Positions 18,488 through 29,096 of a DNA stretch of 38,516 nt are shown here, piece after piece. The translations under genes and the position numbers were made by a program. Source of the DNA: Actinomycetes bacterium (lineage in GTDB: Bacteria; Actinomycetota; Thermoleophilia; Solirubrobacterales; Solirubrobacteraceae); the NCBI GenBank assembly GCA_021820105.1, contig JAKAED010000018.1, positions 1 through 38,516 on the forward strand. The letters run 5' to 3'. Numbering within the stretch: position 1 is the stretch's first letter; the number at the start of each line of letters is the position of its first letter. Below the pieces are notes generated by a model that ran no database searches, had not been told where the DNA came from, and saw only the letters and a program-made list of their open reading frames with translations.

Positions 18488-19915
18488 GTGTTGAGACAAT
18501 TTGATGTGGTGGTAATCGGGGCAGGCCCTGCCGGCGAGGTACTGGCGGGCAGGCTCGCGGAGCGCGGCAGCAAACGCGTCGCGATCGTGGAGGCCGGCTT
18601 GGTCGGCGGCGAGTGCTCCTTCTATGCGTGCATGCCTTCAAAGGCGCTGCTGCGGCCGGCCGAGGTGTTGCGAGAGGTCGCTCGAGTGCCCGGCGCCGCA
18701 GAGGCGGTCACCGGATCGATCGACGTTGAGGCTGCGCTTGCGCGCCGTGATCAGGTGATCAACAACCTCGATGACTCCAACCAGGTTCCGTGGCTGACTG
18801 ACCGCAACATTGAGCTTGTCCGCGGTCATGGGCGGCTGGATGGTGCTGGTCGAGTCAGCGTCGGCGACGATGTGCTTATCGCTCAGGATGCGGTGGTGAT
18901 CGCGGTTGGGACCGGTGCCCTGCTCCCGCCGATCCCTGGTCTTGCAGATGTGAGCGCCTGGTCAAACCGAGAGATCACCACGGCTAAGGCCGTGCCGGAA
19001 CGCCTGATCGTGCTCGGCGGTGGTGTCGTGGGCGTTGAGATGGCGCAGGCGTGGGCATCGTTGGGAGCCGAAGTAACGGTGATTGAGGCGCTGGATCGGC
19101 TCCTCGTACGCGAGGAGCCGATCGCGGGCCAACTGGTGAGGGACTCACTTGAGCACCTGGGGGTGCGGGTGCTCACCGGCGTGCGAGCGAGCGCGGCCGA
19201 GCGTGTGGAGGGCGAGGTGCGCGTGCACCTTGAGACTGGGGAGGTCGTGAGCGGCGATCAACTGCTGGTGGCCATTGGTCGGAGACCGCTGAGCAAGGAC
19301 CTCGGTCTTGAGACGGTCGGGTTAGAACCCGGCGGCTATCTCCAGGTGGACGATCAGATGCGTGTGCTTGGGGCGAGCGGGCTATATGCGGTTGGTGACA
19401 TCAATGGCCGCTCGCTGCTGACTCACTCCGGCAAGTATCAGGCCCGTATCGCCGCCGACCACATCCTTGGCGAGCCCGCGAGTGCGCGCGGCGATGGAAT
19501 TGGCGCGCCACGGGTGGTGTTCACGGACCCGCAGATAGCAGCGGTCGGATTGACGCTGGCGGCAGCGCTTGAGGCCGGCCTGACGGTGGAGGCCTTTGAC
19601 CTTCCGACGGGTGGCTCGGCCGGTGCCAGCTTCTACGGTCGCAATGCTCCCGGCACCAGCCGGTTTGTCGTCGACACTGAACGAGAGGTTTTGGTCGGTG
19701 CCACCTTCATCGGCCCAGAGGTGGCTGACTTCCTGCAGGCGGCGACCATCGCGACGGTGGCTGAGGTGCCGCTGTCGGTGCTCGCGCACGCGGTGGCGCC
19801 GTTTCCCACCCGAAGCGAGCTCTGGTTGAAATTCCTTGAGGCCTATGAGACCGGCAGACAAGTCTCGCTGCACGCCTCGGTGGCGGCGTCGGCTTCCATC
19901 ACTCCGCGGGCCTGA
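18488..19915 (+). CDS. dihydrolipoyl dehydrogenase-like FAD oxidoreductase
   Basis: A 475-residue class I pyridine-nucleotide disulfide oxidoreductase. FAD site is VVIGAGPAGEVLAGRLAERG. The redox dithiol is Cys43 and Cys48 in GGECSFYACMPSK, a variant of the usual GGTCLNxGCxPSK. The NAD(P)H site is IVLGGGVVGVEMAQAWASLG, and the second FAD motif is GLYAVGDINGRSLLTHSGKY. The C-terminal dimerisation domain has VAPFPTRSE in place of the usual HxHPTxSE, so the His-Glu pair is altered and the substrate may differ from lipoamide. GTG 18488 is the start. A 39-base gap to the anti-sigma gene suggests one operon. Confidence 0.88.
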   Translation: MLRQFDVVVIGAGPAGEVLAGRLAERGSKRVAIVEAGLVGGECSFYACMPSKALLRPAEVLREVARVPGAAEAVTGSIDVEAALARRDQVINNLDDSNQVPWLTDRNIELVRGHGRLDGAGRVSVGDDVLIAQDAVVIAVGTGALLPPIPGLADVSAWSNREITTAKAVPERLIVLGGGVVGVEMAQAWASLGAEVTVIEALDRLLVREEPIAGQLVRDSLEHLGVRVLTGVRASAAERVEGEVRVHLETGEVVSGDQLLVAIGRRPLSKDLGLETVGLEPGGYLQVDDQMRVLGASGLYAVGDINGRSLLTHSGKYQARIAADHILGEPASARGDGIGAPRVVFTDPQIAAVGLTLAAALEAGLTVEAFDLPTGGSAGASFYGRNAPGTSRFVVDTEREVLVGATFIGPEVADFLQAATIATVAEVPLSVLAHAVAPFPTRSELWLKFLEAYETGRQVSLHASVAASASITPRA

Positions 19916-19954: not shown

Positions 19955-20203
19955 ATGAACCTCAATCCGATGACCCGCCGTCAGTCCCGCTGTCGGGAGA
20001 CCCGGGCGCAGATGTCTGACTATCTGGACGGCGAACTCTCCGGTGACGACAGCAAGCGCCTTGAGCGCCACACGAGGTGGTGCCCTAGTTGTGCCCGCAT
20101 GCTGACCAATCTCCGCCGGACAGTCACGGGGTTGCAGGCCCTTGGCGATATCCCACCAGACGAAGGAGACCACCGGCGCGAGGAGCCTGGGCCGCTCAGC
20201 TGA
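19955..20203 (+). CDS. zinc-binding anti-sigma factor (ZAS type)
   Basis: An 82-residue soluble protein with the anti-sigma signature His39-x3-Cys43-x2-Cys46 (RHTRWCPSC) preceded by Cys13 and SDYLDGELSGDDSKRLERH. In this family the motif binds zinc and often senses thiol oxidation, releasing an ECF sigma factor. There is no membrane segment. ATG 19955 is used; ATG 19970 is also possible. It follows a dithiol flavoprotein gene by 39 bases and overlaps the convergent ECF sigma gene tail-to-tail by 8 bases. I infer that the convergent sigma factor is its partner, although such pairs are usually co-directional. Confidence 0.85.
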   Translation: MNLNPMTRRQSRCRETRAQMSDYLDGELSGDDSKRLERHTRWCPSCARMLTNLRRTVTGLQALGDIPPDEGDHRREEPGPLS

Positions 20204-20771
20204 CGTAGCCGTCAGCGAACCACTGATCAAGCGCGGCTCGCATTGCCATCCTACCTCGGTGCACGCGGCTCTTCAGGGCCCGTTCGCCGACCCCCAGGAT
20301 CTCCGCGGCCTCAGCGGTTGAGAGACCCTCCACGTCCCGTAGCGTGACGGCGGTTCGGTAGTCAACGGGCAGAGCCGCCAGGGCCGCATCCACCGCGGCG
20401 AGAAATTCTCTGGATTCGAACACCCGATCCGGCTGTGCTCCCCAGGACGGAACGCGTTCGCCCACCTGATCGTCCAGCGGGAGCGTCTGCGGTCTGGTTG
20501 GGCGTACCGCGTTGTAGGCCTCATTGATCGCGATTCTGGTGAGCCACGTGCAGAAGCGCGACCTGCCCTCAAACCTCTGGAGGTTCAGCCAACTCCGCGT
20601 CAGGGCGTTCTGCAGCACGTCGTCGACCTGGTCCTGATCTCGCATCAGACGCCAGAGCACACCTCTGAGCCGCGGAAAGCACGGTTCAGCCAGCTCCGCA
20701 AAGGCCTCCTCGTCACCCTCACGGGCGCGCGCGACCAGCCGTGACTCGTCCACGCGCGACATTATCTTCAT
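20196..20771 (-). CDS. ECF-type RNA polymerase sigma factor
   Basis: A 191-residue sigma-70 family ECF factor. Region 2 reads FPRLRGVLWRLMRDQDQVDD, VLQNALTRSWLNLQRFEGRS and FCTWLTRIAINEAYNAVR. Region 4 reads DYRTAVTLRDVEGLSTAEAA, EILGVGERALKSRVHRGR. It would direct RNA polymerase to a small regulon. It lies 38 bases downstream of the methyltransferase gene on the same strand, so it may be the last gene of the radical SAM operon, and it is convergent with the anti-sigma gene. ATG 20771 or ATG 20762 may be the start. Confidence 0.93.
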   Translation of the reverse strand: MKIMSRVDESRLVARAREGDEEAFAELAEPCFPRLRGVLWRLMRDQDQVDDVLQNALTRSWLNLQRFEGRSRFCTWLTRIAINEAYNAVRPTRPQTLPLDDQVGERVPSWGAQPDRVFESREFLAAVDAALAALPVDYRTAVTLRDVEGLSTAEAAEILGVGERALKSRVHRGRMAMRAALDQWFADGYVS

Positions 20772-20809
20772 TTCCGGAGCTAAGTACCCACCAAGTAGGA
20801 GCGCAGTGC

Positions 20810-21457
20810 TCAGCGGACCCGGTTACTGAGCACGCAGAGGCTCGGGTAGCCGCGCAGGCTCCACCGCACCGCGGTGCAGTCAAAGCCCGCGGCCTGAAGC
20901 GCAGCCCGTGGATCCAGTGCGCGAAGCCCGCCGAGCTGCTCCGGGAAGTACCGACCGATCAGATCAAGCAGGGTGCCGGTCATACGGCCAAGGCCGCCGG
21001 CGGGCACGGCAGGGGTCACGGTCAGGAGCTGGCCGCCAGGCCGCAAAACACGGCGCAGCTCATCCAGAGCCGGCGACAGATCGCGTGCGGGCAGCAGGTG
21101 CAGCACGTAGGAGGCGGTGATCGTGTCGAAACTACCGGAGGGTTTTGGCAGCGCGCGCAGATCTCCGAGTTCAGCGACCCAGCCTGAGGGGAGCGGTCGC
21201 AGCCTGGAGAGCATTCCGGGAGAAGAGTCGATCGCCGTCAGCGCCCGTGGTCGCCAACGTTTATGGGCAAGCTGACGCAGAACCTCTCCTGTCCCGGTGC
21301 CCACGTCGAGCCAGCGTTGACCGGAAGTCGGTTCGAGCATTTGGAGCGCGGACCGTATCGCGGTTTGCTCCAGGCACAGCTGGCGGTCGTAGGAGCGGGC
21401 GTGACGATCCCAAACATCTGGACCGCCCGCCCCGGTCCACTCACGATTGCGCGTCAT
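20810..21457 (-). CDS. class I SAM-dependent methyltransferase
   Basis: A 215-residue methyltransferase of the UbiE/ArsM-like fold. Motif I is RWLDVGTGTGEVLRQLAHK, motif II TAIDSSPGMLSRL, then ELGDLRALPKPSGSFDTITA, SYVLHLLP and LRRVLRPGGQLLTVTPAVP. The substrate is unknown. Its three cysteines are near residue 28 and in the last quarter and do not match the Cys triad of arsenite methyltransferases, so I would not call it ArsM. Its ATG overlaps the MFS stop by one base (TGATG), which suggests coupled translation and a shared pathway. Confidence 0.9.
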   Translation of the reverse strand: MTRNREWTGAGGPDVWDRHARSYDRQLCLEQTAIRSALQMLEPTSGQRWLDVGTGTGEVLRQLAHKRWRPRALTAIDSSPGMLSRLRPLPSGWVAELGDLRALPKPSGSFDTITASYVLHLLPARDLSPALDELRRVLRPGGQLLTVTPAVPAGGLGRMTGTLLDLIGRYFPEQLGGLRALDPRAALQAAGFDCTAVRWSLRGYPSLCVLSNRVR

Positions 21458-22809
21458 CAGCGTGCTCCACGGCCGGCGAGAGCTTCGAGCGAGATCCCCC
21501 GTGCCTCAATCCCGCGCAGCCACCAGATTGCGGAGGCGAGCGCTCCGATCGCCCATAGACCGCCGAGTGTGGCGAAGCCACTCCACAGTCCGAAGCTGGA
21601 GGCCAGTTGCGCAAGCACGACCGCACCGACTATCGCGCCGATGCGTCCCACAGCCACGCACGCCCCGACGCCCGTGGCCCGAAGGTGCGTCGGGAACAGT
21701 TCGGTGAAGGTCGGGTAAGCCGACATCCAGGCCATTGAGGCGAACAGCACGGCCACGGTGAACGCTGCCAGGGTCCATCCAGGGGAGTGGCTGATCGCAG
21801 CCGCGGCCACCAGCAGAGATGAGAGCGATGCGGTGCTGTAGCCGAACAGCAGGGTCGGTTTGCGGCCCACCCGATCCAGAGCCCAGCTGACGGTGAGTCC
21901 TCCAAGCAGCGCTCCGAGATTAGCCACCAGGTAGTAGTAGGGGACAGCGCGTGCGGAGACGCCCACCGCGTTGCGGGTCAGCACGAACACCGAGACGAAG
22001 GTGAACAGCCCGTAATAGCCGGCTGCCTCGGAGAAGTCCAAGGCCATTCCGAAGAGCAGACGGCCACGGTATCCGCGCCAGAGTTCGCCCAGCTGCGCTC
22101 GAGCTGATCGCTGAAGCTCGACGGGAAGATATTCGGCGCGCTCGCGCCGGATCCCGGAGATCTGCTCGATCACAGCGTTGGCATCGGCGAGCCTGCCCTG
22201 AGCGGCGAGCCACCGTGGTGACTCGGGCACCAGTCGCCGCGCCAGCAGTCCGTAGATGGCGCTGAGGACCCCGAACAGCAGTGCGATCCGCCAACCACCG
22301 GAACCCAGGACGGTGGAGACGAACAGGATTCCGACGAGGCCGGCGGCGATGCCCCCAATTGACCAGAAGTTCATCACCAGCGCGTTGGTGCGCCCGCGCG
22401 CGCGGGCCGGCATGAACTCGCTGATGGCCGAACAGACCGCCGAATATTCGCCCCCGACGCCCAACCCGGTCAGGAAGCGAAAAGCCATGAAGAAGCCGTA
22501 GCTCGGGGAGACAGCCGTGGCCAGCGCCGAGAGTGAGTAGAGGATCAGCGTGGCTACAAATAGCCGGCGTCGGCCGACTCTGTCGGCCAGGTATCCGAAG
22601 AGCGCGGCACCCAGGCCGAGCCCAACGAACCAGATCACGAACACAGCAATCTGCTGATCGGCAGAGAGCCTGAACGTGGCAGCGATCGCCGGGATCACAC
22701 TGCCGATGATCTGGACCTCAAAGGCGTCAAGTGCCCAGCCGATCCCAAGCGCGCCGGCGATGCGGCGATGAATCGGGCGCCATGCGGCGCGGTCGAGCCG
22801 GTCAGACAA
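21457..22809 (-). CDS. MFS transporter (sugar-porter/NiaP-like)
   Basis: A 450-residue major facilitator with about 12 membrane segments. The loop 2-3 motif is GYLADRVGRRRLFV, the TM4-5 region GLGVGGEYSAVCSAISEFMP then ARARGR, the mid-loop RRLVPESPRWLAAQGR (PESPRW signature), and the second-half motif SWALDRVGRKPTLLFG. The PESPR and G-R-R/K motifs match metabolite:H+ symporters and organic acid or nicotinate carriers. The substrate is unknown. It sits 10 bases after the TIGR04283 gene and overlaps the methyltransferase gene, so it is likely an importer or exporter for that pathway. Confidence 0.9.
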   Translation of the reverse strand: MSDRLDRAAWRPIHRRIAGALGIGWALDAFEVQIIGSVIPAIAATFRLSADQQIAVFVIWFVGLGLGAALFGYLADRVGRRRLFVATLILYSLSALATAVSPSYGFFMAFRFLTGLGVGGEYSAVCSAISEFMPARARGRTNALVMNFWSIGGIAAGLVGILFVSTVLGSGGWRIALLFGVLSAIYGLLARRLVPESPRWLAAQGRLADANAVIEQISGIRRERAEYLPVELQRSARAQLGELWRGYRGRLLFGMALDFSEAAGYYGLFTFVSVFVLTRNAVGVSARAVPYYYLVANLGALLGGLTVSWALDRVGRKPTLLFGYSTASLSSLLVAAAAISHSPGWTLAAFTVAVLFASMAWMSAYPTFTELFPTHLRATGVGACVAVGRIGAIVGAVVLAQLASSFGLWSGFATLGGLWAIGALASAIWWLRGIEARGISLEALAGRGAR

Positions 22810-22819
22810 GGTCGGCCCC

Positions 22820-23494
22820 CTAGCGGATCACTGGGTAGAGGCGAGCGAGCCTGGTCGGTGAGACACCTGCCAGGTACAGCCACCTGATTGCCACCCACGC
22901 CGCGATGGTTCTGCTGATGCCGTGACCCTGCCAGCGCCGAGCCGATGTCACCGCCGGACCCGCGAGGCATCTGGTGCTTCCCAGCCTCTCCAGGCGCCGG
23001 ACAAAGTCGTAGTCCTCCATGATCGGCATATCCCTGTACCCACCGAGGAGATCAAAGACCTCCCGGCGACACCAGATGGCGGAGTCGCCGTAATAGATGC
23101 CCAATCGTCGCTGCAGTTGGTACCAGCGGCCCAACAGCCTGCTGAAGCGATCACCTCCGTCGAAGCTCAGCGCGAAGTTGCCGCCGAGCACGAGCCGATC
23201 GGTGAGTGTCCTCCTGATCGCCTCCGCAGCCCCCTCGGGAAGTTCGGTGTCAGCGTGCAGGAACACCAGCACCTCGCCGGTGCAAGTGTCTGCGCCCGCG
23301 TTGAGCTGTCTTGCCCTGCCGCGCTGCACCCGCATCAGCCTGGGCGAACTCGGATGCGCGAGCACCAGCGCGCAGGTGGAGTCAGTTGAACCGCCATCAA
23401 CGACCACCACATCCTGAAACTCCGTGAGGCGATCAAGCAGGGACTTGATCCGGGCCTCCTCGTTGAGCGTTGGGATGATCACCGAGATCCTCAC
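22820..23494 (-). CDS. TIGR04283-type family 2 glycosyltransferase
   Basis: A 224-residue GT2 enzyme. It starts RISVIIPTLNEEARIKSLLD, then VVVVDGGSTDSTCALV, RARQLNAGA, VLVFLHADTELPEGAAE (metal-binding Asp region), GGNFALSFDG and YYGDSAIWCRREVFDLLGGY followed by MEDYDFVRRL. This matches the glycosyltransferases often found near arsenosugar genes (TIGR04283). The real substrate is unproven. GTG 23494 overlaps the upstream stop (GTGA), the expected coupling, and removes an 18-residue extension of the longer frame. It is paired with a TIGR04282 gene, as in other genomes. Confidence 0.9.
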   Translation of the reverse strand: MRISVIIPTLNEEARIKSLLDRLTEFQDVVVVDGGSTDSTCALVLAHPSSPRLMRVQRGRARQLNAGADTCTGEVLVFLHADTELPEGAAEAIRRTLTDRLVLGGNFALSFDGGDRFSRLLGRWYQLQRRLGIYYGDSAIWCRREVFDLLGGYRDMPIMEDYDFVRRLERLGSTRCLAGPAVTSARRWQGHGISRTIAAWVAIRWLYLAGVSPTRLARLYPVIR

Positions 23495-24132
23495 GCGAGC
23501 ACCGCCTGAATCGAGGGAGGGCATCCTGGGTGACGGAGCAGTGCGCACGCGTCGGCGGGCGTGTCAAGATCCGGCACCGGTGGCAGCAGCGCAACCGTGA
23601 TGCCCGCTCGGTCCAGCGCAGCCAGCGTGAGCGAGAGCACATCGGGGCCGCCCCAGGCACGCACCGGCAGGTCGAATGCGGCTGGATCCGGCGTCGCCAT
23701 GGCGATCAGCACGTAGCCGCCATCCAAAGCCGGGATCAGGGACGCGCCTGCACCCGCGCGCAGTGACGCAAAAGCTGACCTGACGTGAGGCGCGCCCAGC
23801 AGCGGGGCGTCCGTGCCGATCACCGCCAGCGGGCCTCGGTTTCGCCCGGCGGCATCAGCGCAGGCGGCGGCAAGGCGCGCGCCAAGGTTTTCGCCCCGTT
23901 GCGGGAACAGCGCCACCTCTGGTGGGACGAGATTGGCCAGCAAGGAGCCGGCGTCGACCGGCGCGTACGCGAGTGAGACAGCGTCCGCCGCGTTCACGGC
24001 CCAGGTGACGGTATGGCGGATGAGCCGGCTTTGCAGCTCGGCGCACCCATGGTCTCCGAGCAGCGGTTCGAGCCGGGTCTTCACCGCGCCGGGCGCCGGG
24101 GCCTTGGCCATGACCAGTAGGCCCGTCCTCAT
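23491..24132 (-). CDS. TIGR04282-type (DUF2064) nucleotidyl/glycosyltransferase
   Basis: A 213-residue protein with a nucleotide-diphospho-sugar transferase-like fold: LLVMAKAPAPGAVKTRLEPL, FPQRGENLGARLAAACADAA, AVIGTDAPLLGAPHVRSAFA, SLIPALDGGYVLIAMATPDP, and VLLPPVPDLDTPADACAL. This is the DUF2064/TIGR04282 pattern, linked by neighbourhood to arsenosugar synthesis and otherwise uncharacterised. ATG 24132 overlaps the radical SAM stop codon (ATGA), and its own stop overlaps the next start. The longer GTG 24141 start is less likely. Confidence 0.9.
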   Translation of the reverse strand: MRTGLLVMAKAPAPGAVKTRLEPLLGDHGCAELQSRLIRHTVTWAVNAADAVSLAYAPVDAGSLLANLVPPEVALFPQRGENLGARLAAACADAAGRNRGPLAVIGTDAPLLGAPHVRSAFASLRAGAGASLIPALDGGYVLIAMATPDPAAFDLPVRAWGGPDVLSLTLAALDRAGITVALLPPVPDLDTPADACALLRHPGCPPSIQAVLA

Positions 24133-25817
24133 ACGGCGCACCGAAATGCCGCAGGCAGGCTGCCGTCAGCCTGACGGAGCGCGAGGAAACGCTCCGTGAT
24201 CAGTTGCTTGGCGCGGCCCAGGGGTACCGTCCCCGGTGCCACCAGCATGTCTGGGCTTGATTCCAGATCTCCACCCAGAGGATGCCAGTGGACACCGTCG
24301 GCTGAAACCGTCAGTTCGGGAGCGACGACGGCGTCGTCGAGCACACTCGCCTCTGGCACCTGCGCCGCGAAGCCGCGACGCACCAGTGGCCTGACTGCAA
24401 AGGCATCACCAACAACGCCGTACTCCTCCAGCAACGAACGCAGCGCCGGTATCTCCTGCCGGTTATGGGGCGTCTCGGTCATCGCCACACGCAGCGGAAG
24501 GCCGAGTCTGTTGGCGTGCTGAATCCCTGCAAGAGCGCGGGCGAACGATCCGCTTCCGCGCCAGGCATCGTGAGACGCTGCGGTGGCACCGTCGAGTGAA
24601 GTCTGCAGCACCAACTGCTCGCGTCCGGCCAGGCGGTCCAGTTCGTGCTTCCGCCGACCATGGAAGAGCATGGCGTTGGTCAGCACCACCGTTTGAATCC
24701 TGTCCGAGCAGTATTCGAGCATCGACACTATGTCCGGATGCAGGAACGGTTCGCCGCCGGTCAGGTAGATCTCAGCGAAGTCCTCCGCGAGCGCCTCGTC
24801 CACCAGGCGCCGGAAATAGGCAAGCTCGAGCGAGCGGGGTCGAGCCCGGGGCGAGGATGCGACCACGCAGTAGTCGCAGGCGAGGTTGCAGTGGAAGTTG
24901 GTGTAGATCCACAATCGCGCCGGGAACGCCGGGGTACCGAACAGCGGCACGACCGGACGCTCCTCATCGGCGTGTGCAGGGCGTTCGACCCAACCCAACT
25001 CCGCAGTGGGGACGAGATCGTCCACCGTCGCGCGATACAGGTGGAAGCGTCCACGGGCTCGCTCGGGGGGCGGCACTATCTCCAGGCATGTGGTCCACCA
25101 GCCCGTCTCGATCGTCTCAACGAACGGTTCCGGGAGCCCGGCGGTCCGCATCGACGCGGCCTGTGCCGGCCAGTCGTAGTCCACGGCGACGAGCTGCGCC
25201 TCAGCGACACCGGCGTTGATATCTATCAGCGCATACCAGACGCACGTTCTGCCGTCATTGGCAGGACGGCCCACGACGCCGACGTTCACGATCAGGGCGC
25301 CATCGAGCCGACGCTGCCAGGGGATCCCGGTATGCGTGCAGAGCAGCACATCTGCGCCGCTTGCGTCCAGCCGCAGCCGCAGCTCGTCATCGTCCAGTGA
25401 CTCCCACATGAAATCGTTGATGGCAAGCGGCGAGCCGTGAACCATGTGCACGTCAAGGCCACCCATGGGCTCCCGTAGTTGCTCCGGGAGCGTCCGCATC
25501 CAGGCGGCAAACGCCGGGTCGGTGTGCGCCAGCGTGTAGTCGTAGAGCAGCTGGGCATAGTGGTTGTCGCGCTCGTCGGCGTAGCCGCAGCCACAGTCCG
25601 GATCGCCCCTACCGATGGCCAGGTCGTAGTTGCCGGCTATGCACTCCACCCGGTTCTCAAGCAGCAGCTGCCAGATCTCGTTGCACTCAGCGCCGAACCC
25701 GCCCAGGTCGCCTAGGCAGAAGATCCGCTCGCAGCCGCGCTCGCGAGCGTCCCGCAGCGTCGCGCGCAGCGCGTAGGGATTGGCATATGGGCCGCCCAGC
25801 GCGGCGATTCGAGTCAT
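24129..25817 (-). CDS. metallophosphoesterase-like domain fused to radical SAM enzyme
   Basis: A 562-residue two-domain protein. Residues 1-235 resemble calcineurin-like phosphoesterases of the YfcE type: GDLGGFG (36-42), GNYD (62-65), VHGSP (126-130) and a THTGIP segment (161-166). The usual first motif SDIHGN reads GGPYAN (8-13), so the DxH metal ligands are lost and GNHD is GNYD. Residues about 300-500 are a radical SAM core: Cys310, Cys314 and Cys317 (CNLACDYC), TGGEPF (353-358) and QTSLDGATAASHDAW. A lone Cys560 lies near the end. It heads the leftward operon. The reaction is unknown. Phosphatase activity looks doubtful. Confidence 0.85.
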   Translation of the reverse strand: MTRIAALGGPYANPYALRATLRDARERGCERIFCLGDLGGFGAECNEIWQLLLENRVECIAGNYDLAIGRGDPDCGCGYADERDNHYAQLLYDYTLAHTDPAFAAWMRTLPEQLREPMGGLDVHMVHGSPLAINDFMWESLDDDELRLRLDASGADVLLCTHTGIPWQRRLDGALIVNVGVVGRPANDGRTCVWYALIDINAGVAEAQLVAVDYDWPAQAASMRTAGLPEPFVETIETGWWTTCLEIVPPPERARGRFHLYRATVDDLVPTAELGWVERPAHADEERPVVPLFGTPAFPARLWIYTNFHCNLACDYCVVASSPRARPRSLELAYFRRLVDEALAEDFAEIYLTGGEPFLHPDIVSMLEYCSDRIQTVVLTNAMLFHGRRKHELDRLAGREQLVLQTSLDGATAASHDAWRGSGSFARALAGIQHANRLGLPLRVAMTETPHNRQEIPALRSLLEEYGVVGDAFAVRPLVRRGFAAQVPEASVLDDAVVAPELTVSADGVHWHPLGGDLESSPDMLVAPGTVPLGRAKQLITERFLALRQADGSLPAAFRCAV

Positions 25818-25847
25818 TGATGCTTCGACCGCCAGGACGGGGGAGAG

Positions 25848-25861
25848 GATTCATCTGAATC
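25848..25861. promoter_or_regulatory. small palindrome in the divergent promoter
   Basis: GATTCA-TC-TGAATC lies in the 107-base gap between the two divergent operons (starts at 25817 and 25925). A shared regulator site is plausible but the arms are only 6 bases. Confidence 0.35.
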
Positions 25862-25924
25862 GCTCAACCGGTCGACGGTGTCCAACGCCACTGGAAGCTG
25901 TCATCACAAACCTGGAGTGCAGAA

Positions 25925-26281
25925 ATGAGCAGAATGAGTGAGCTCGTCAAGCGAGCGTTCACCGACACGACGACCACTGAAGGACCCGTTGAGGCTGTCT
26001 GGAACGGCGTGGTGCTTGCCCGTAGCGACAACACGGTCGTGGTTGAGGGCAACCACTACTTCCCACCGGAGGCGATCAAACGTGAGCACTTCTCGACCAG
26101 CAGCAAGCAGACGGTCTGCCCCTGGAAGGGCAGAGCAAGCTACTACGACCTGAACGCCGGGGGCGAGTCCAATCCGGCAGCTGCCTGGTACTACCCGGAT
26201 CCCAGCCCGGCGGCAGCTCACATCAAGGATCACGTGGCATTCTGGAAGGGAGTCCAGGTTCGCCCGGCGGCGACACTGTGA
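25925..26281 (+). CDS. DUF427-domain protein
   Basis: A 118-residue protein of the DUF427 family: VEAVWNGVVLARSDNTVVVE, GNHYFPPEAIKREHFSTSSK, TVCPWKGRASYYDLNAGGES and the C-terminal AAAHIKDHVAFWKGVQV. Members adopt a small barrel fold and have no established activity. The CPWKG cysteine and nearby His/Tyr residues are conserved. GGAG lies 7 bases before ATG 25925. It is the first gene of the rightward operon, and its stop overlaps the radical SAM start (GTGA), which points to a role in the same pathway. Confidence 0.9.
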   Translation: MSRMSELVKRAFTDTTTTEGPVEAVWNGVVLARSDNTVVVEGNHYFPPEAIKREHFSTSSKQTVCPWKGRASYYDLNAGGESNPAAAWYYPDPSPAAAHIKDHVAFWKGVQVRPAATL

Positions 26282-27654
26282 TCGCCACGAGCCTGCGGAG
26301 CATCTGGGAGCGTTCGCGCCCGGTGCATCCGGACACGGCTGCTGCTCTGCGGACGCGCTGGGCGGAACTGCCGCCCGTCGCCCGCAACCCAGCTCAGCTG
26401 CTTGGTCGGCACACGGTCGGTTGCGAGGGCACCCATGGTGTGTTTCCAAGGTGCAACCTTGCGTGTACGCCCTGCTACCACGCGCGTCAGGCCAATTCGG
26501 TCCGAATCGATGCAGAACACACGATCAAGGCCGTTGACGCCCAGATGCAGCTGCTGCGGACTCTCCGCGGGACTGGACAGCACGCCCAGCTGATCGGGGG
26601 CGAGGTCACCCTGCTGGGACCCGAAGCACATGGTGACGCGCTGGCTGTGATGGAACGTCACGGCCGCAAACCCATGAGCATGACCCACGGCGACTTTGAC
26701 TATGACTACCTTGAGCGATTGGCGCTTGGAGCCGATGGCCGCAGGCGGTTCCGCTTGCTCAGATTCGCGGGCCACTTCGACTCACTGATGCTTGGGCGAA
26801 GCGATGCGCCGCGGCCTGTTGAGGAGGCAGAGCTCAACCCGGCGCGCCGGCGATTCGTGGCCAACTTCGAGCGTCTCAAGCAGGAGCACGGAGTCGACTA
26901 CGACCTCGCCCACAACATGACGGTCACGCCGCGCAATATCGGTGAGGTTGCCCAGGTAGCCCGCATCGCCATGGACATGGGGTACGGGATGGCGTCATTT
27001 CAACCGGCTGCATACGTCGGCAACCCGCGGCGGTGGCGCGAGGATTTCCATCAGGTTGATATGGACACGGTCTGGAGCGAGATCGAGCGCGGCGTCGGGA
27101 CGCGGCTTCCCTGGGCGCATCTGCAGATGGGTGACCCACGCTGCAACCGCAGCGCCTACGGCGTACTCACCCGCGGGCATTGGGTGCCGCTGCTGGACGA
27201 TTTGGATCCTCGGGATCTCCGGATGCGGGACCTGTTTCTCACCCACTGCGGCGGCATCGACCCGCAGCAACCAACGGCGGTGCTGGCGCTCATGATTGCC
27301 CGCCTCGCTTGGCGCAGACCGGCGTTGATCCCGGCGGCGCTCGGCTGGGCACGGCGTCTGCTTGGCAGGATCGGCCTGCGCCGTCTGCTGCGCGGCCGTC
27401 CTCGTGGCATGACGTTTGTGGTGCACGCGTTCATGGACGCTGAGGTGGTGCTACCTGCCTGGGAGGCCATGGAGCGGGGCGAGACCGCAGCTGACCCCCA
27501 GGTGCGCGCCGCCCAGGAGCGGCTGCAGGCGTGCTCTTACGCGATGGCGCATCCGGAGACGGGACGGCTGGTTCCCGCATGCGTCCAACACTCGGTCCTG
27601 GACCCTGAGGAGAACCTCAGGTTGGCTGAACTCCTCCCACTGGTCAGCGCGTGA
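26278..27654 (+). CDS. radical SAM protein
   Basis: A 458-residue radical SAM enzyme. The [4Fe-4S]-binding motif is Cys59, Cys63 and Cys66 in FPRCNLACTPCYHARQ, with GGEVTLLGPEAHG (107-119) as the GGE motif. The middle (RFVANFERLKQEHGVDYDLA, GYGMASFQPAAYVGN) completes the barrel. The C-terminal third has a basic, hydrophobic helix region (about 335-375) and extra cysteines (SYAMAHPETGRLVPACVQ), which may bind a second cluster or a substrate. Substrate and reaction are unknown. GTG 26278 overlaps the DUF427 stop, and its own stop overlaps the next gene's start. Confidence 0.87.
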   Translation: MIATSLRSIWERSRPVHPDTAAALRTRWAELPPVARNPAQLLGRHTVGCEGTHGVFPRCNLACTPCYHARQANSVRIDAEHTIKAVDAQMQLLRTLRGTGQHAQLIGGEVTLLGPEAHGDALAVMERHGRKPMSMTHGDFDYDYLERLALGADGRRRFRLLRFAGHFDSLMLGRSDAPRPVEEAELNPARRRFVANFERLKQEHGVDYDLAHNMTVTPRNIGEVAQVARIAMDMGYGMASFQPAAYVGNPRRWREDFHQVDMDTVWSEIERGVGTRLPWAHLQMGDPRCNRSAYGVLTRGHWVPLLDDLDPRDLRMRDLFLTHCGGIDPQQPTAVLALMIARLAWRRPALIPAALGWARRLLGRIGLRRLLRGRPRGMTFVVHAFMDAEVVLPAWEAMERGETAADPQVRAAQERLQACSYAMAHPETGRLVPACVQHSVLDPEENLRLAELLPLVSA

Positions 27655-29096
27655 TGGAAGCGAGCTACGACCTGGTGGTTATCGGTGGCGGCACCGGTGG
27701 GCTCGTCGCGGCGTTGATCGCGGCGGGGATCGGCGCAAGGGTGGCGCTGGTGGAGCGCGACCGGCTCGGGGGGGACTGCCTCTGGACCGGCTGCGTGCCG
27801 TCCAAGAGCCTGCTGGCTGCGGCTGAGTTGGCGCATCTGATCCGCCACGCTGATGGGCTCGGACTGACGCCCAGCGAGCCGGCGATTGACTTCAGCCGGG
27901 TCATGGAGCGGGTTCGGCGCGCGGTCACGACGATCGAGGCCCATGAGAGCGCGGAGCGTCTGCAACGTGACGGAGTCAGCTTGATCAGGGGCCACGCGCG
28001 CTTCACCGGTCGTGGCCGGCTGGTCGTTGACGCTCGGCCGTTGCGGTTCCGTGCCGCCATCATCGCCACAGGCTCACGCCCGGTGGTGCCGTCGGTCCCG
28101 GGCTTGACTGATGCCCCGACCCTGACCACGGACACGGTGTGGCAACTGGAGCGGCTGCCTGAACGTCTGGTGATCCTCGGCGGAGGGCCGATCGGCTGCG
28201 AGTTCGCACAGGCGTTTGTTCGGCTTGGCGCGGCGGTCACCGTCGTTGAGTTGAGCCAGCGCCTGCTCCCCAGAGAGGAGCCGGCGGCCAGCCGCCTGCT
28301 TGCCGATCGGCTGACGGCGGAGGGTGTGCAGATCAGGCTTGACGCGCAAGCCGAACGCTTTGAGTCCGCTTCCGGCCACAGCGAGGTTGTGCTTGCCGGC
28401 GGGGAGCGTCTGCCCGCGGACGCGATTCTGCTCGCGGTGGGTCGGGTCCCCCGCAGCACCGGTCTTGGGCTGGAGACGGTTGGCGTGGCCACCGATCCGC
28501 GCGGGGCGGTCTTGGTTGATGAGCATCTGCGCACCAGTGCGCGAGGAATCTACGCCGTCGGTGACGTGACTGGTCTGCTCCAGTTCACGCACGTTGCCGC
28601 GCACCACGCCCGCGTTGCGGTTCCCAATGCGCTTTTCCACGCGGGTTCACGGCGCTCCGAGACGATCCCGTGGGTGACCTTCACAGACCCCGAGGTGGCC
28701 CGAGTGGGCCTGACGGAGGCCGAGGCTCGGGAGCGGTGGGGTGACCGTGCGCGGGTCGCCGGCTATGAGTACGCGGAGCTCGATCGGGCAATAACGTCCG
28801 GGCAGGCCTACGGCTTTGCAAAGTTGATTGCTGATCCGCGCGGGCGGCTTGTCGGAGCAACCATCGCCGCTCCGGCTGCCGGCGAGGCGCTTGGAGAGGT
28901 TGCCGCTCTGATTGCCCGTGGCGGACGGATGCACGACCTATCACGCGCGGTGCACGCCTATCCAACGCTGGCGGAGGGGCCGGTACGTGCGGCGGATGAT
29001 GACCTTGCCGCGCGCTATTCGACACCCGGCCTACGGCGGTTGGCGAGCCTGGTGTTCGGCGGCCAGCGCCTGTGGTCGCGCTTGCGCGGACGCTAG
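27654..29096 (+). CDS. mercuric-reductase-like FAD oxidoreductase
   Basis: About 480 residues of the class I disulfide oxidoreductase family. FAD motif VVIGGGTGGLVAALIAAGIG; dithiol GDCLWTGCVPSKS (Cys43 and Cys48 counted from GTG 27651); NAD(P)H motif VILGGGPIGCEFAQAFVRLG; second FAD motif GIYAVGDVTGLLQFTHVAAH; C-terminal VHAYPTLAEG. It has no N-terminal heavy-metal domain and no C-terminal CC pair, so it is not a classical mercuric reductase. Relatives are often found beside membrane and radical SAM genes. ATG 27654 or GTG 27651 overlaps the radical SAM stop. It is the last gene of the rightward operon. Confidence 0.88.
   Translation: MEASYDLVVIGGGTGGLVAALIAAGIGARVALVERDRLGGDCLWTGCVPSKSLLAAAELAHLIRHADGLGLTPSEPAIDFSRVMERVRRAVTTIEAHESAERLQRDGVSLIRGHARFTGRGRLVVDARPLRFRAAIIATGSRPVVPSVPGLTDAPTLTTDTVWQLERLPERLVILGGGPIGCEFAQAFVRLGAAVTVVELSQRLLPREEPAASRLLADRLTAEGVQIRLDAQAERFESASGHSEVVLAGGERLPADAILLAVGRVPRSTGLGLETVGVATDPRGAVLVDEHLRTSARGIYAVGDVTGLLQFTHVAAHHARVAVPNALFHAGSRRSETIPWVTFTDPEVARVGLTEAEARERWGDRARVAGYEYAELDRAITSGQAYGFAKLIADPRGRLVGATIAAPAAGEALGEVAALIARGGRMHDLSRAVHAYPTLAEGPVRAADDDLAARYSTPGLRRLASLVFGGQRLWSRLRGR

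What the first reader, a model, noticed from the sequence alone, without database searches (positions are those of the whole stretch)
20196..29096. Two divergent, tightly coupled radical SAM operons with a sigma gene at one end: a candidate undescribed biosynthetic pathway
Seen: the leftward set (radical SAM fusion, TIGR04282, TIGR04283, MFS, methyltransferase) has 4-, 4-, (10-base gap) and 1-base junctions, with an ECF sigma gene 38 bp further on. The rightward set (DUF427, radical SAM, flavoprotein) is coupled by GTGA/TGATG overlaps. Known: TIGR04282/04283 enzymes are associated with arsenosugar genes. Inference: two radical SAM steps, glycosylation, methylation and transport make one small product. 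There is no arsR, arsB or recognisable ArsM, so the arsenic link is weak and another element or scaffold is possible.
Basis: partly seen in the sequence, partly recalled or inferred. Interest (0 to 1): 0.78.

Follow-up and report, generated by a model that had tools for sequence, protein, structure and literature searches.

The report
Arsenic-sugar operon with fused reductase–radical enzyme
This soil bacterium carries a conserved gene set that most likely builds an arsenic-containing sugar, using an unusual enzyme in which an arsenic-reductase-like domain is joined to a radical-chemistry domain in place of the known arsenosugar enzyme.

Summary
The operons are real and recur together: 16 of 17 genomes of the order with the fused radical SAM gene (RSF) also carry the second radical SAM gene (RS2), and 59 of 70 orthologous loci keep TIGR04282 and/or TIGR04283. 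RSF's N-terminal domain is of the metallophosphoesterase type found in ars operons: all 19 stand-alone relatives listed in the order lie near arsR, arsC or arsM, against 1 weak hit in 18 control stretches. In 32 of 32 aligned RSF proteins it keeps the Cys-x-Cys pair reported as essential in the arsenate reductase Car1, but has lost the Asp-x-His metal motif. Orthologous Streptomyces clusters add an ArsM-like gene with its three conserved cysteines and a phosphorylase like the one beside genuine ArsS genes, where TIGR04283–ArsS–phosphorylase form a similar module. Best reading: an arsenosugar-type pathway in which RSF replaces ArsS. The product, RSF's reaction and RS2's role are inferred. Against it: ArsM does not track RSF within the order, and one complete RSF-bearing Conexibacter genome shows no ArsM. 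New variant of a known kind.

The parts
24129..25817 (-). RSF: Car1-like (metallophosphoesterase-fold) putative arsenic reductase domain (residues 1 to about 240) fused to a radical SAM domain (about 290-562)
   Evidence: Pfam; NCBIfam Rv1681 family 267.3 bits, below cut-off 380; invariant C75/C77, G9/Y11 and C310/C314/C317 in 32 of 32 aligned; AlphaFold model, mean pLDDT 86.4, and Foldseek
23491..24132 (-). TIGR04282 CofC-like transferase (longest ORF starts at 24141; the ATGA overlap suggests 24132); proposed nucleotidyl transfer to an arseno-ribose-1-phosphate
   Evidence: 154.4 bits, cut-off 134
22820..23494 (-). TIGR04283 family-2 glycosyltransferase (longest ORF from 23548; the GTGA overlap suggests 23494)
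   Evidence: 216.4 bits, cut-off 182; DGGSxDxT and HAD motifs conserved at 90% or more of 47 rows
21457..22809 (-). MFS transporter
   Evidence: PF07690, PF00083; MFS homologue in 22 of 70 fused-RSF loci by tblastn
20810..21457 (-). SAM methyltransferase; no Cys conserved in all 7 aligned, so unlike ArsM
20196..20771 (-). ECF sigma factor
   Evidence: ECF homologue at 200 bits or more in 18 of 70 fused-RSF loci
19955..20203 (+). putative zinc-finger anti-sigma (HxxxCxxC; pattern recalled), tail-to-tail with the sigma gene
   Evidence: sequence; same arrangement in L024, L087, L122
25925..26281 (+). DUF427 protein
   Evidence: PF04248; homologue in 16 of 70 fused-RSF loci
26278..27654 (+). RS2: second radical SAM protein (C59/C63/C66 invariant in 25 of 25), far from named families
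27651..29096 (+). FAD2: pyridine-nucleotide disulphide oxidoreductase; redox CxxxxC in all 53 rows aligned
18488..19915 (+). FAD1: second disulphide oxidoreductase beside the anti-sigma gene; also at that end of the cluster in L024 and L122 (membership uncertain)

Best explanation
The locus is an arsenosugar-type (organoarsenical) biosynthetic cluster. RSF takes a pentavalent arsenical (arsenate, or a methylated arsenical made by the two ArsM enzymes encoded elsewhere in this genome), reduces it to As(III) with the Cys75/Cys77 pair of its Car1-like domain, and its radical SAM domain then joins a 5'-deoxyadenosyl group to arsenic, the step done by ArsS in known arsenosugar pathways. A phosphorylase of the ArsS-linked type (encoded elsewhere in this genome next to a second TIGR04282-like gene; inside the cluster in Streptomyces) removes adenine to give the 5-arseno-ribose-1-phosphate, TIGR04282 activates it, TIGR04283 transfers it to an acceptor, and MFS moves the product. 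FAD2 probably regenerates reduced thiols; RS2 and the methyltransferase make a further tailoring step, possibly on a lipid acceptor. The ECF sigma/anti-sigma pair probably controls it. Shown by computation: gene content, conservation, domain and motif facts, association with ars genes. Inferred: every reaction, the order of steps, the regulation and the product.
For: All 19 stand-alone homologues of the RSF N-terminal domain listed in the order at E 1e-30 lie in stretches with ArsR (16), ArsC (12) or ArsM (10); 1 of 18 control stretches has a short ArsR hit. Plasmid homologues sit in annotated ars operons (three looked at). Cys-x-Cys invariant in 32 of 32 aligned RSF, at positions 74/76 in a Mucilaginibacter ars homologue, the numbers given for the essential cysteines of Car1 (passage in PMC12124457); the segment is absent from the ordinary metallophosphoesterase 3rqz. 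ArsM-like gene at 300 bits or more in 17 of 70 fused-RSF loci; each cysteine of the triad in 19 of 20 aligned rows, gaps only in two partial reading frames. Phosphorylase in 24 of 70 loci, of the same score class as the ArsS-adjacent ones and far from true MTA phosphorylase. TIGR04283-ArsS-phosphorylase in a row in 4 of 8 ArsS stretches fetched. All 7 of 396 phylum genomes with RSF have TIGR04283, against 22 of 389 others, p 5e-9, relatedness not corrected. Own genome: 2 ArsM over cut-off, phosphorylase next to a second TIGR04282-like gene.
Against: ArsM does not track RSF within the order: 10 of 16 other RSF genomes against 7 of 15 non-RSF genomes, p 0.48. ArsM and phosphorylase are not in the window's cluster. 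RSF scores only 53.2 bits with the ArsS model (cut-off 300). The Asp-x-His motif is lost, so whether reduction still works is unknown; Car1's own sequence was not compared. RS2 is unexplained and occurs without RSF in 6 genomes. 18 of 29 TIGR04283 genomes in the phylum sample have neither RSF nor ArsS at the thresholds used. The ten two-gene relatives L094-L103 showed none of ArsM, ArsR, ArsC or ACR3 nearby. In the tree the ArsS-linked phosphorylases do not form a supported group with the RSF-cluster ones alone.
Confidence: 0.6

Rival explanations
1. It is an arsenic pathway, but RS2 makes the As-C bond and RSF only reduces arsenic or makes another radical modification.
For: RS2 is missing in all 5 tested genomes whose RSF locus lacks the transferases (L032, L035, L036, L043, L083) and present in 7 of the other 8; RS2 lies beside the phosphorylase gene in Streptomyces loci.
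Against: In the five RS2 stretches without RSF (L117-L121; five of the six such genomes) no TIGR04282/04283, phosphorylase, ArsM, ArsC or ACR3 was found; L120 has an ArsR-family regulator. RSF shares TIGR04283 in 7 of 7 phylum genomes. Genome G537 (L040) has ArsM, phosphorylase, TIGR04283 and RSF but no RS2 match.
Confidence: 0.2
2. The cluster handles selenium or another element; the arsenic names of TIGR04282/04283 are inherited labels.
For: RS2's best, very weak family match is the (seleno)protein TrsS (25.4 bits of 490; matched by 25 of 25 members). The PhnD-like protein near RSF in L036 also matches a putative selenate-transport model below its cut-off.
Against: ars-operon relatives of the RSF N-terminal domain and ArsM-like genes with the Cys triad in orthologous clusters; ACR3 in 3 of 80 RSF loci. 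Selenium genes were not systematically sought.
Confidence: 0.1
3. RSF is a housekeeping or RiPP-type radical SAM enzyme and the neighbours are an ordinary polysaccharide or lipid-tailoring set without any metalloid.
For: Generic family annotations; Foldseek matches of the radical SAM half to BlsE, SkfB and SuiB.
Against: Association with ars genes and the CxC pair. I ran no search for a precursor peptide.
Confidence: 0.1

Closest known systems
Arsenosugar biosynthesis with ArsM + ArsS (reported for cyanobacteria)
   Same: Same companions: TIGR04282/04283 transferases, ArsM in the genome, phosphorylase of one score class.
   Different: No ArsS: the radical SAM protein scores 53.2 of 300 bits with it and is fused to a reductase-like domain; extra RS2, FAD2, DUF427, MFS, ECF sigma.
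Car1, metallophosphoesterase-type arsenate reductase (Rufibacter tibetensis)
   Same: Fold family, ars-operon relatives, Cys-x-Cys pair at equivalent positions.
   Different: Fused to radical SAM; Asp-x-His replaced by Gly-x-Tyr in 32 of 32. The Car1 paper was not held and its sequence was not compared.
HpnH/HpnG hopanoid adenosylation and phosphorylase pair
   Same: Logic: radical SAM adenosylation followed by a nucleoside-phosphorylase step (role recalled, not tested).
   Different: Weak sequence similarity only (RSF with TIGR03470 48.8 bits of 225; cluster phosphorylases with TIGR03468 28-30 bits of 187).
Rv1681 family radical SAM protein (NF049973)
   Same: Nearest named family of the RSF radical SAM half (267.3 bits over residues 295-561).
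   Different: Below cut-off 380; no function given; the 326-position model is too short to hold both RSF domains.
Bisenarsan and arsinothricin pathways
   Same: Bacterial organoarsenicals; arsinothricin uses a radical SAM enzyme for C-As bond formation (passages of PMC12159101).
   Different: Neither pathway's genes were compared here; the bisenarsan C-As bond is proposed to arise without SAM-dependent enzymes.

Membership tests
ArsM/ArsS arsenosugar pathway | ArsS (TIGR04167) radical SAM | tested here: not met
   RSF 53.2 bits, cut-off 300; no ArsS at E 1e-40 in the window's genome, which is 88.9% complete
ArsM/ArsS arsenosugar pathway | TIGR04282 and TIGR04283 transferases above cut-off | tested here: met
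ArsM/ArsS arsenosugar pathway | ArsM in the genome | tested here: met
   two genes over cut-off, 313 bits each, on other contigs; no match in the RSF-bearing relative G066
ArsM/ArsS arsenosugar pathway | arsenic-containing sugar product | not testable with these tools
   chemistry needed
Car1-like arsenate reductase | Cys-x-Cys pair at 74/76 | tested here: met
   C75/C77 in 32 of 32 aligned
Car1-like arsenate reductase | Asp-x-His metal motif kept by stand-alone ars relatives (whether Car1 needs it is not known to me) | tested here: not met
   GGxYxN in 32 of 32 RSF and 10 of 10 two-gene relatives, against (S/T)DxH in the stand-alone relatives of the order
Car1-like arsenate reductase | arsenate reduction | not testable with these tools
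   assay needed
Radical SAM superfamily | CxxxCxxC cluster motif | tested here: met
   RSF C310/C314/C317 and RS2 C59/C63/C66 invariant
Rv1681 family (NF049973) | score over cut-off 380 | tested here: not met
   267.3 bits
MTA phosphorylase (TIGR01694) | score over cut-off 274.85 | tested here: not met
   own-genome copy 151.7 bits; two Streptomyces cluster copies 148.9 and 163.1

The most novel reading that the evidence does not exclude
RSF is a bifunctional enzyme that reduces a pentavalent arsenical on Cys75/Cys77 of a metallophosphoesterase fold that no longer has its usual metal motif, and hands the As(III) directly to the radical SAM centre for adenosylation: a second, independent solution to the ArsS step, spread through Actinomycetota and, as a two-gene version, through Acidobacteria, Planctomycetes and Balneolales.
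Probability: 0.4. Interest if true: 0.85.

Novelty: new variant of a known kind. Interest (0 to 1): 0.7.

Why it matters
A 2025 review (PMC12159101, passages read) says that arsenosugars are reported from several cyanobacteria and that actinomycetes were long known to make only simple methylated arsenicals, until bisenarsan. This locus predicts arsenosugar-type products in Streptomyces and soil Thermoleophilia, names a candidate enzyme joining arsenic reduction and C-As bond formation, and suggests concrete functions for TIGR04282, TIGR04283 and a phosphorylase subfamily whose best model is MTA phosphorylase. All of it can be tested in culturable strains.

Tried and rejected
RSF as an ArsS: rejected by score. 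Window methyltransferase as an ArsM: rejected, no Cys conserved in all 7 aligned. RS2 as a known family: only very weak TrsS, Tes and viperin matches, no convincing PDB sequence match (best E 0.16) and only generic radical SAM folds. A simple all-against-all ORF clustering was spoiled by antisense shadow ORFs and replaced by a profile panel. That panel misses genes overlapped by longer ORFs: it finds a transferase in 54 of 70 loci, tblastn in 59 of 70. ArsS and RSF share no genome in the phylum sample (8 and 7 genomes), but chance gives that with p 0.87, so it is no evidence of exclusion. The phosphorylase tree holds 63 rows, cluster members only if over 350 bits, and one shadow ORF (L208, 97 bits) on a branch of length 10; two weaker cluster copies (L064 199 bits, L082 145 bits) were left out. 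ECF promoter: only the intergenic sequence was read, no motif analysis. First count of stand-alone relatives left one of 19 unfetched; added. Literature: nothing found on this fusion in the open PMC library (searches; the first 20 of 79 papers were listed); subscription papers are mostly not held. Papers of which I saw passages: PMC12159101, PMC11237643, PMC12124457, PMC10652896; the others only as listings.
Full report
What is there. The window is a whole 38.5-kb contig of a 4.0-Mb draft genome of 264 contigs. In the list of related named loci the nearest is Conexibacter sp. DBS9H8 (79% identity over the fused protein; records of very near genomes may be left out there). A small ORF with an HxxxCxxC pattern, typical of zinc-finger anti-sigma factors (recalled), lies tail-to-tail with the sigma gene.

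Is it a unit? One scan of named genomes gave 90 relatives of the fused protein RSF, of which the best 80 were kept: 70 loci of the fused type (L024-L093, some cut by contig ends or interrupted, several from one genome) and 10 distant ones (L094-L103) in which a radical SAM gene and a metallophosphoesterase gene lie side by side. By tblastn with the window proteins, 59 of the 70 have TIGR04282 and/or TIGR04283 (GT83 58, GT82 40), 45 RS2, 22 MFS and 16 DUF427. By a profile panel the numbers are 54 with either transferase, RS2 44, FAD2 homologue 40, phosphorylase 24, ECF sigma 18, ArsM 17, DUF427 16. Of 42 loci with at least 5 kb on both sides of RSF, 8 lack both transferases by the panel, of which two (L038, L092) have TIGR04283 by tblastn, leaving 6. 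In 151 genomes of the order I count 17 with RSF (14 full-length, G043 and G001 in two pieces, G075 the C-terminal half only; other matches there cover one domain at lower identity) and 22 with RS2 (two seen only as fragments at contig ends); 16 are shared (Fisher p 8e-16). The exception, G076, has RSF on a 4,975-base contig. Relatedness of genomes is not corrected for in any of these tests.

Arsenic, first line: the N-terminal domain. At E 1e-30 the order-level search lists 19 matches to this domain alone, 36-40% identical. I fetched the surroundings of all 19 and searched them with ArsM, ArsR, ArsC and ACR3 proteins taken from ars operons of named plasmids. All 19 have at least one (ArsR 16, ArsC 12, ArsM 10, ACR3 0; six have only a distant ArsR or only ArsC); of 18 control stretches, placed by hand in genomes of the order, one has a short ArsR match. 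Plasmid relatives lie in annotated ars operons of Mucilaginibacter, Pontibacter and Rubrobacter, and a genome announcement describes two metallophosphoesterases in ars operons of another Mucilaginibacter (PMC10652896, passage). A 2025 paper (PMC12124457, passages read) reports that an ars-operon metallophosphoesterase resembles Car1, an As(V) reductase of Rufibacter tibetensis, and has Cys74 and Cys76, essential there. In the Mucilaginibacter homologue the pair is at 74 and 76; in RSF it is Cys75 and Cys77, invariant in all 32 aligned (31 of the 70 loci plus the window). In the alignment of the Pontibacter homologue with the ordinary metallophosphoesterase 3rqz that segment is missing. The stand-alone relatives keep an Asp-x-His motif (18 of 18 aligned, and the 19th); the 32 fused proteins have Gly-x-Tyr. 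The ten two-gene relatives have GGxYxN and CxC in 10 of 10. AlphaFold (mean pLDDT 86.4, pTM 0.67) and Foldseek give a metallophosphoesterase half (PH1004, SapH) and a radical SAM half (BlsE, SkfB, SuiB).

Second line: the missing genes appear in orthologous clusters. Two Streptomyces-type loci scanned carry a methyltransferase whose best model is arsenite methyltransferase (200 and 195 bits, below cut-off 263). Seventeen such locus proteins were aligned with annotated Rubrobacter ArsM and the two ArsMs of this genome: cysteines corresponding to Cys82, Cys170 and Cys223 of the Rubrobacter protein are each in 19 of 20 rows, the gaps being partial reading frames in L059 and L089. That these are ArsM's catalytic residues is recalled. 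Loci also carry a phosphorylase that scores 149-163 bits with MTA phosphorylase (two scanned, cut-off 275). MTA phosphorylase acts on a 5'-substituted deoxyadenosine (recalled), and an adenosylated arsenical would be another. The window's own genome has two ArsM genes over cut-off, one beside an MFS gene whose best model is ArsK (107 bits, below cut-off 400) and one beside arsA (751 bits, over cut-off), and a phosphorylase 28 bp from a second TIGR04282-like gene (92 bits, below cut-off 134). The same pair recurs in G066 (L200).

Third line: comparison with genuine ArsS. ArsS is found in 8 of 396 phylum genomes. I fetched 8 stretches around ArsS genes from 6 of these genomes (three, L137-L139, from one). 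Four (L134, L135, L136, L140) show TIGR04283, ArsS and the phosphorylase in a row; L141, a short contig, has both transferases beside ArsS without the phosphorylase; L139 has an ArsM-ArsS fusion; L137 and L138 have none of these. With a profile built from RSF-cluster phosphorylases, the ArsS-linked ones score 323-364, the Solirubrobacterales ones 403-432, the cluster ones mostly 426-646 (two weak copies, 145 and 199), true MTA phosphorylases 100-134; the profile favours its own members. In the unrooted tree the true MTA phosphorylases stand apart on a long branch, which joins weakly beside the ArsS-linked group, so it does not prove that ArsS-linked and RSF-cluster enzymes form one clade. RSF occurs in 7 of 396 genomes (E 1e-90) and all 7 have TIGR04283 (E 1e-45), against 22 of the other 389 (p 5e-9). 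So RSF stands where ArsS stands, although its ArsS score is only 53.2 bits of 300.

RS2. It has an invariant CxxxCxxC motif but only very weak family matches, and the cluster loop is modelled with low confidence. In 13 genomes chosen by hand, RS2 is present in 7 of the 8 with a transferase at the RSF locus and in 0 of the 5 without; it therefore goes with the sugar branch. But 6 genomes of the order have RS2 without RSF. In five of them the surroundings (L117-L121) show ECF sigma in 5, FAD2 in 3 and DUF427 in 2, no transferases, phosphorylase or ArsM, and in L120 an ArsR-family regulator. I cannot assign its reaction. VTT-domain and CDP-alcohol phosphatidyltransferase genes in some loci make a lipid-linked product possible.

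Against. ArsM presence does not differ between RSF and non-RSF genomes of the order (10 of 16 against 7 of 15), and G066, a one-contig genome with two RSF loci, shows none. Either methylation is not needed, or the substrate comes methylated, or another methyltransferase acts. The window methyltransferase has no Cys triad. The ten two-gene relatives have no ars gene nearby by the same search.

Verdict. Arsenic pathway: about 0.8. RSF as the ArsS counterpart: about 0.6. Direct transfer from the reductase half to the radical SAM half: about 0.4. My searches of the open library found no description of this fusion; a subscription paper is not excluded.

Noticed in passing
window 19955-20203 and 20196-20771: Anti-sigma-like ORF tail-to-tail (8-base overlap) with its sigma gene instead of co-directional; the same in L024, L087 and L122, but co-directional in L120 and L121.
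   Followed up: partly
L139:6721-9219: Natural fusion of an ArsM-like and an ArsS radical SAM domain in one ORF of an unnamed actinobacterial genome.
   Followed up: no
L036, L043, L083: RSF with an ArsM-like gene nearby and, in L036, phosphonate-type ABC transporter genes (PhnD-like, PhnE), without transferases at the locus and without RS2 in the genome; might be uptake of an arsenical.
   Followed up: partly
L144 (Mycolicibacterium vanbaalenii plasmid): Radical SAM gene 46% identical to the RSF radical SAM half next to a PhnD-like binding protein gene, with a deiodinase-like gene and a second radical SAM gene nearby.
   Followed up: no
L116:8105-9686: Phosphorylase plus TIGR04282-like pair near glmU and ispE in the window's genome; the pair recurs in G066 (L200).
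   Followed up: partly
L134, L136, L140: ArsS loci also carry a flippase-like gene (scanned in L136, L140) and a C-GCAxxG-C-C protein (scanned in L134, L136), candidates for further arsenosugar steps.
   Followed up: no
L142:7762-8496: A tandem second metallophosphoesterase in the Mucilaginibacter ars operon lacks the Cys-x-Cys pair.
   Followed up: no
L024:9078-9698: A 206-aa ORF without Pfam match lies between the divergent operons in Conexibacter DBS9H8 (homologue in L122), where the window has only a 107-bp gap.
   Followed up: no
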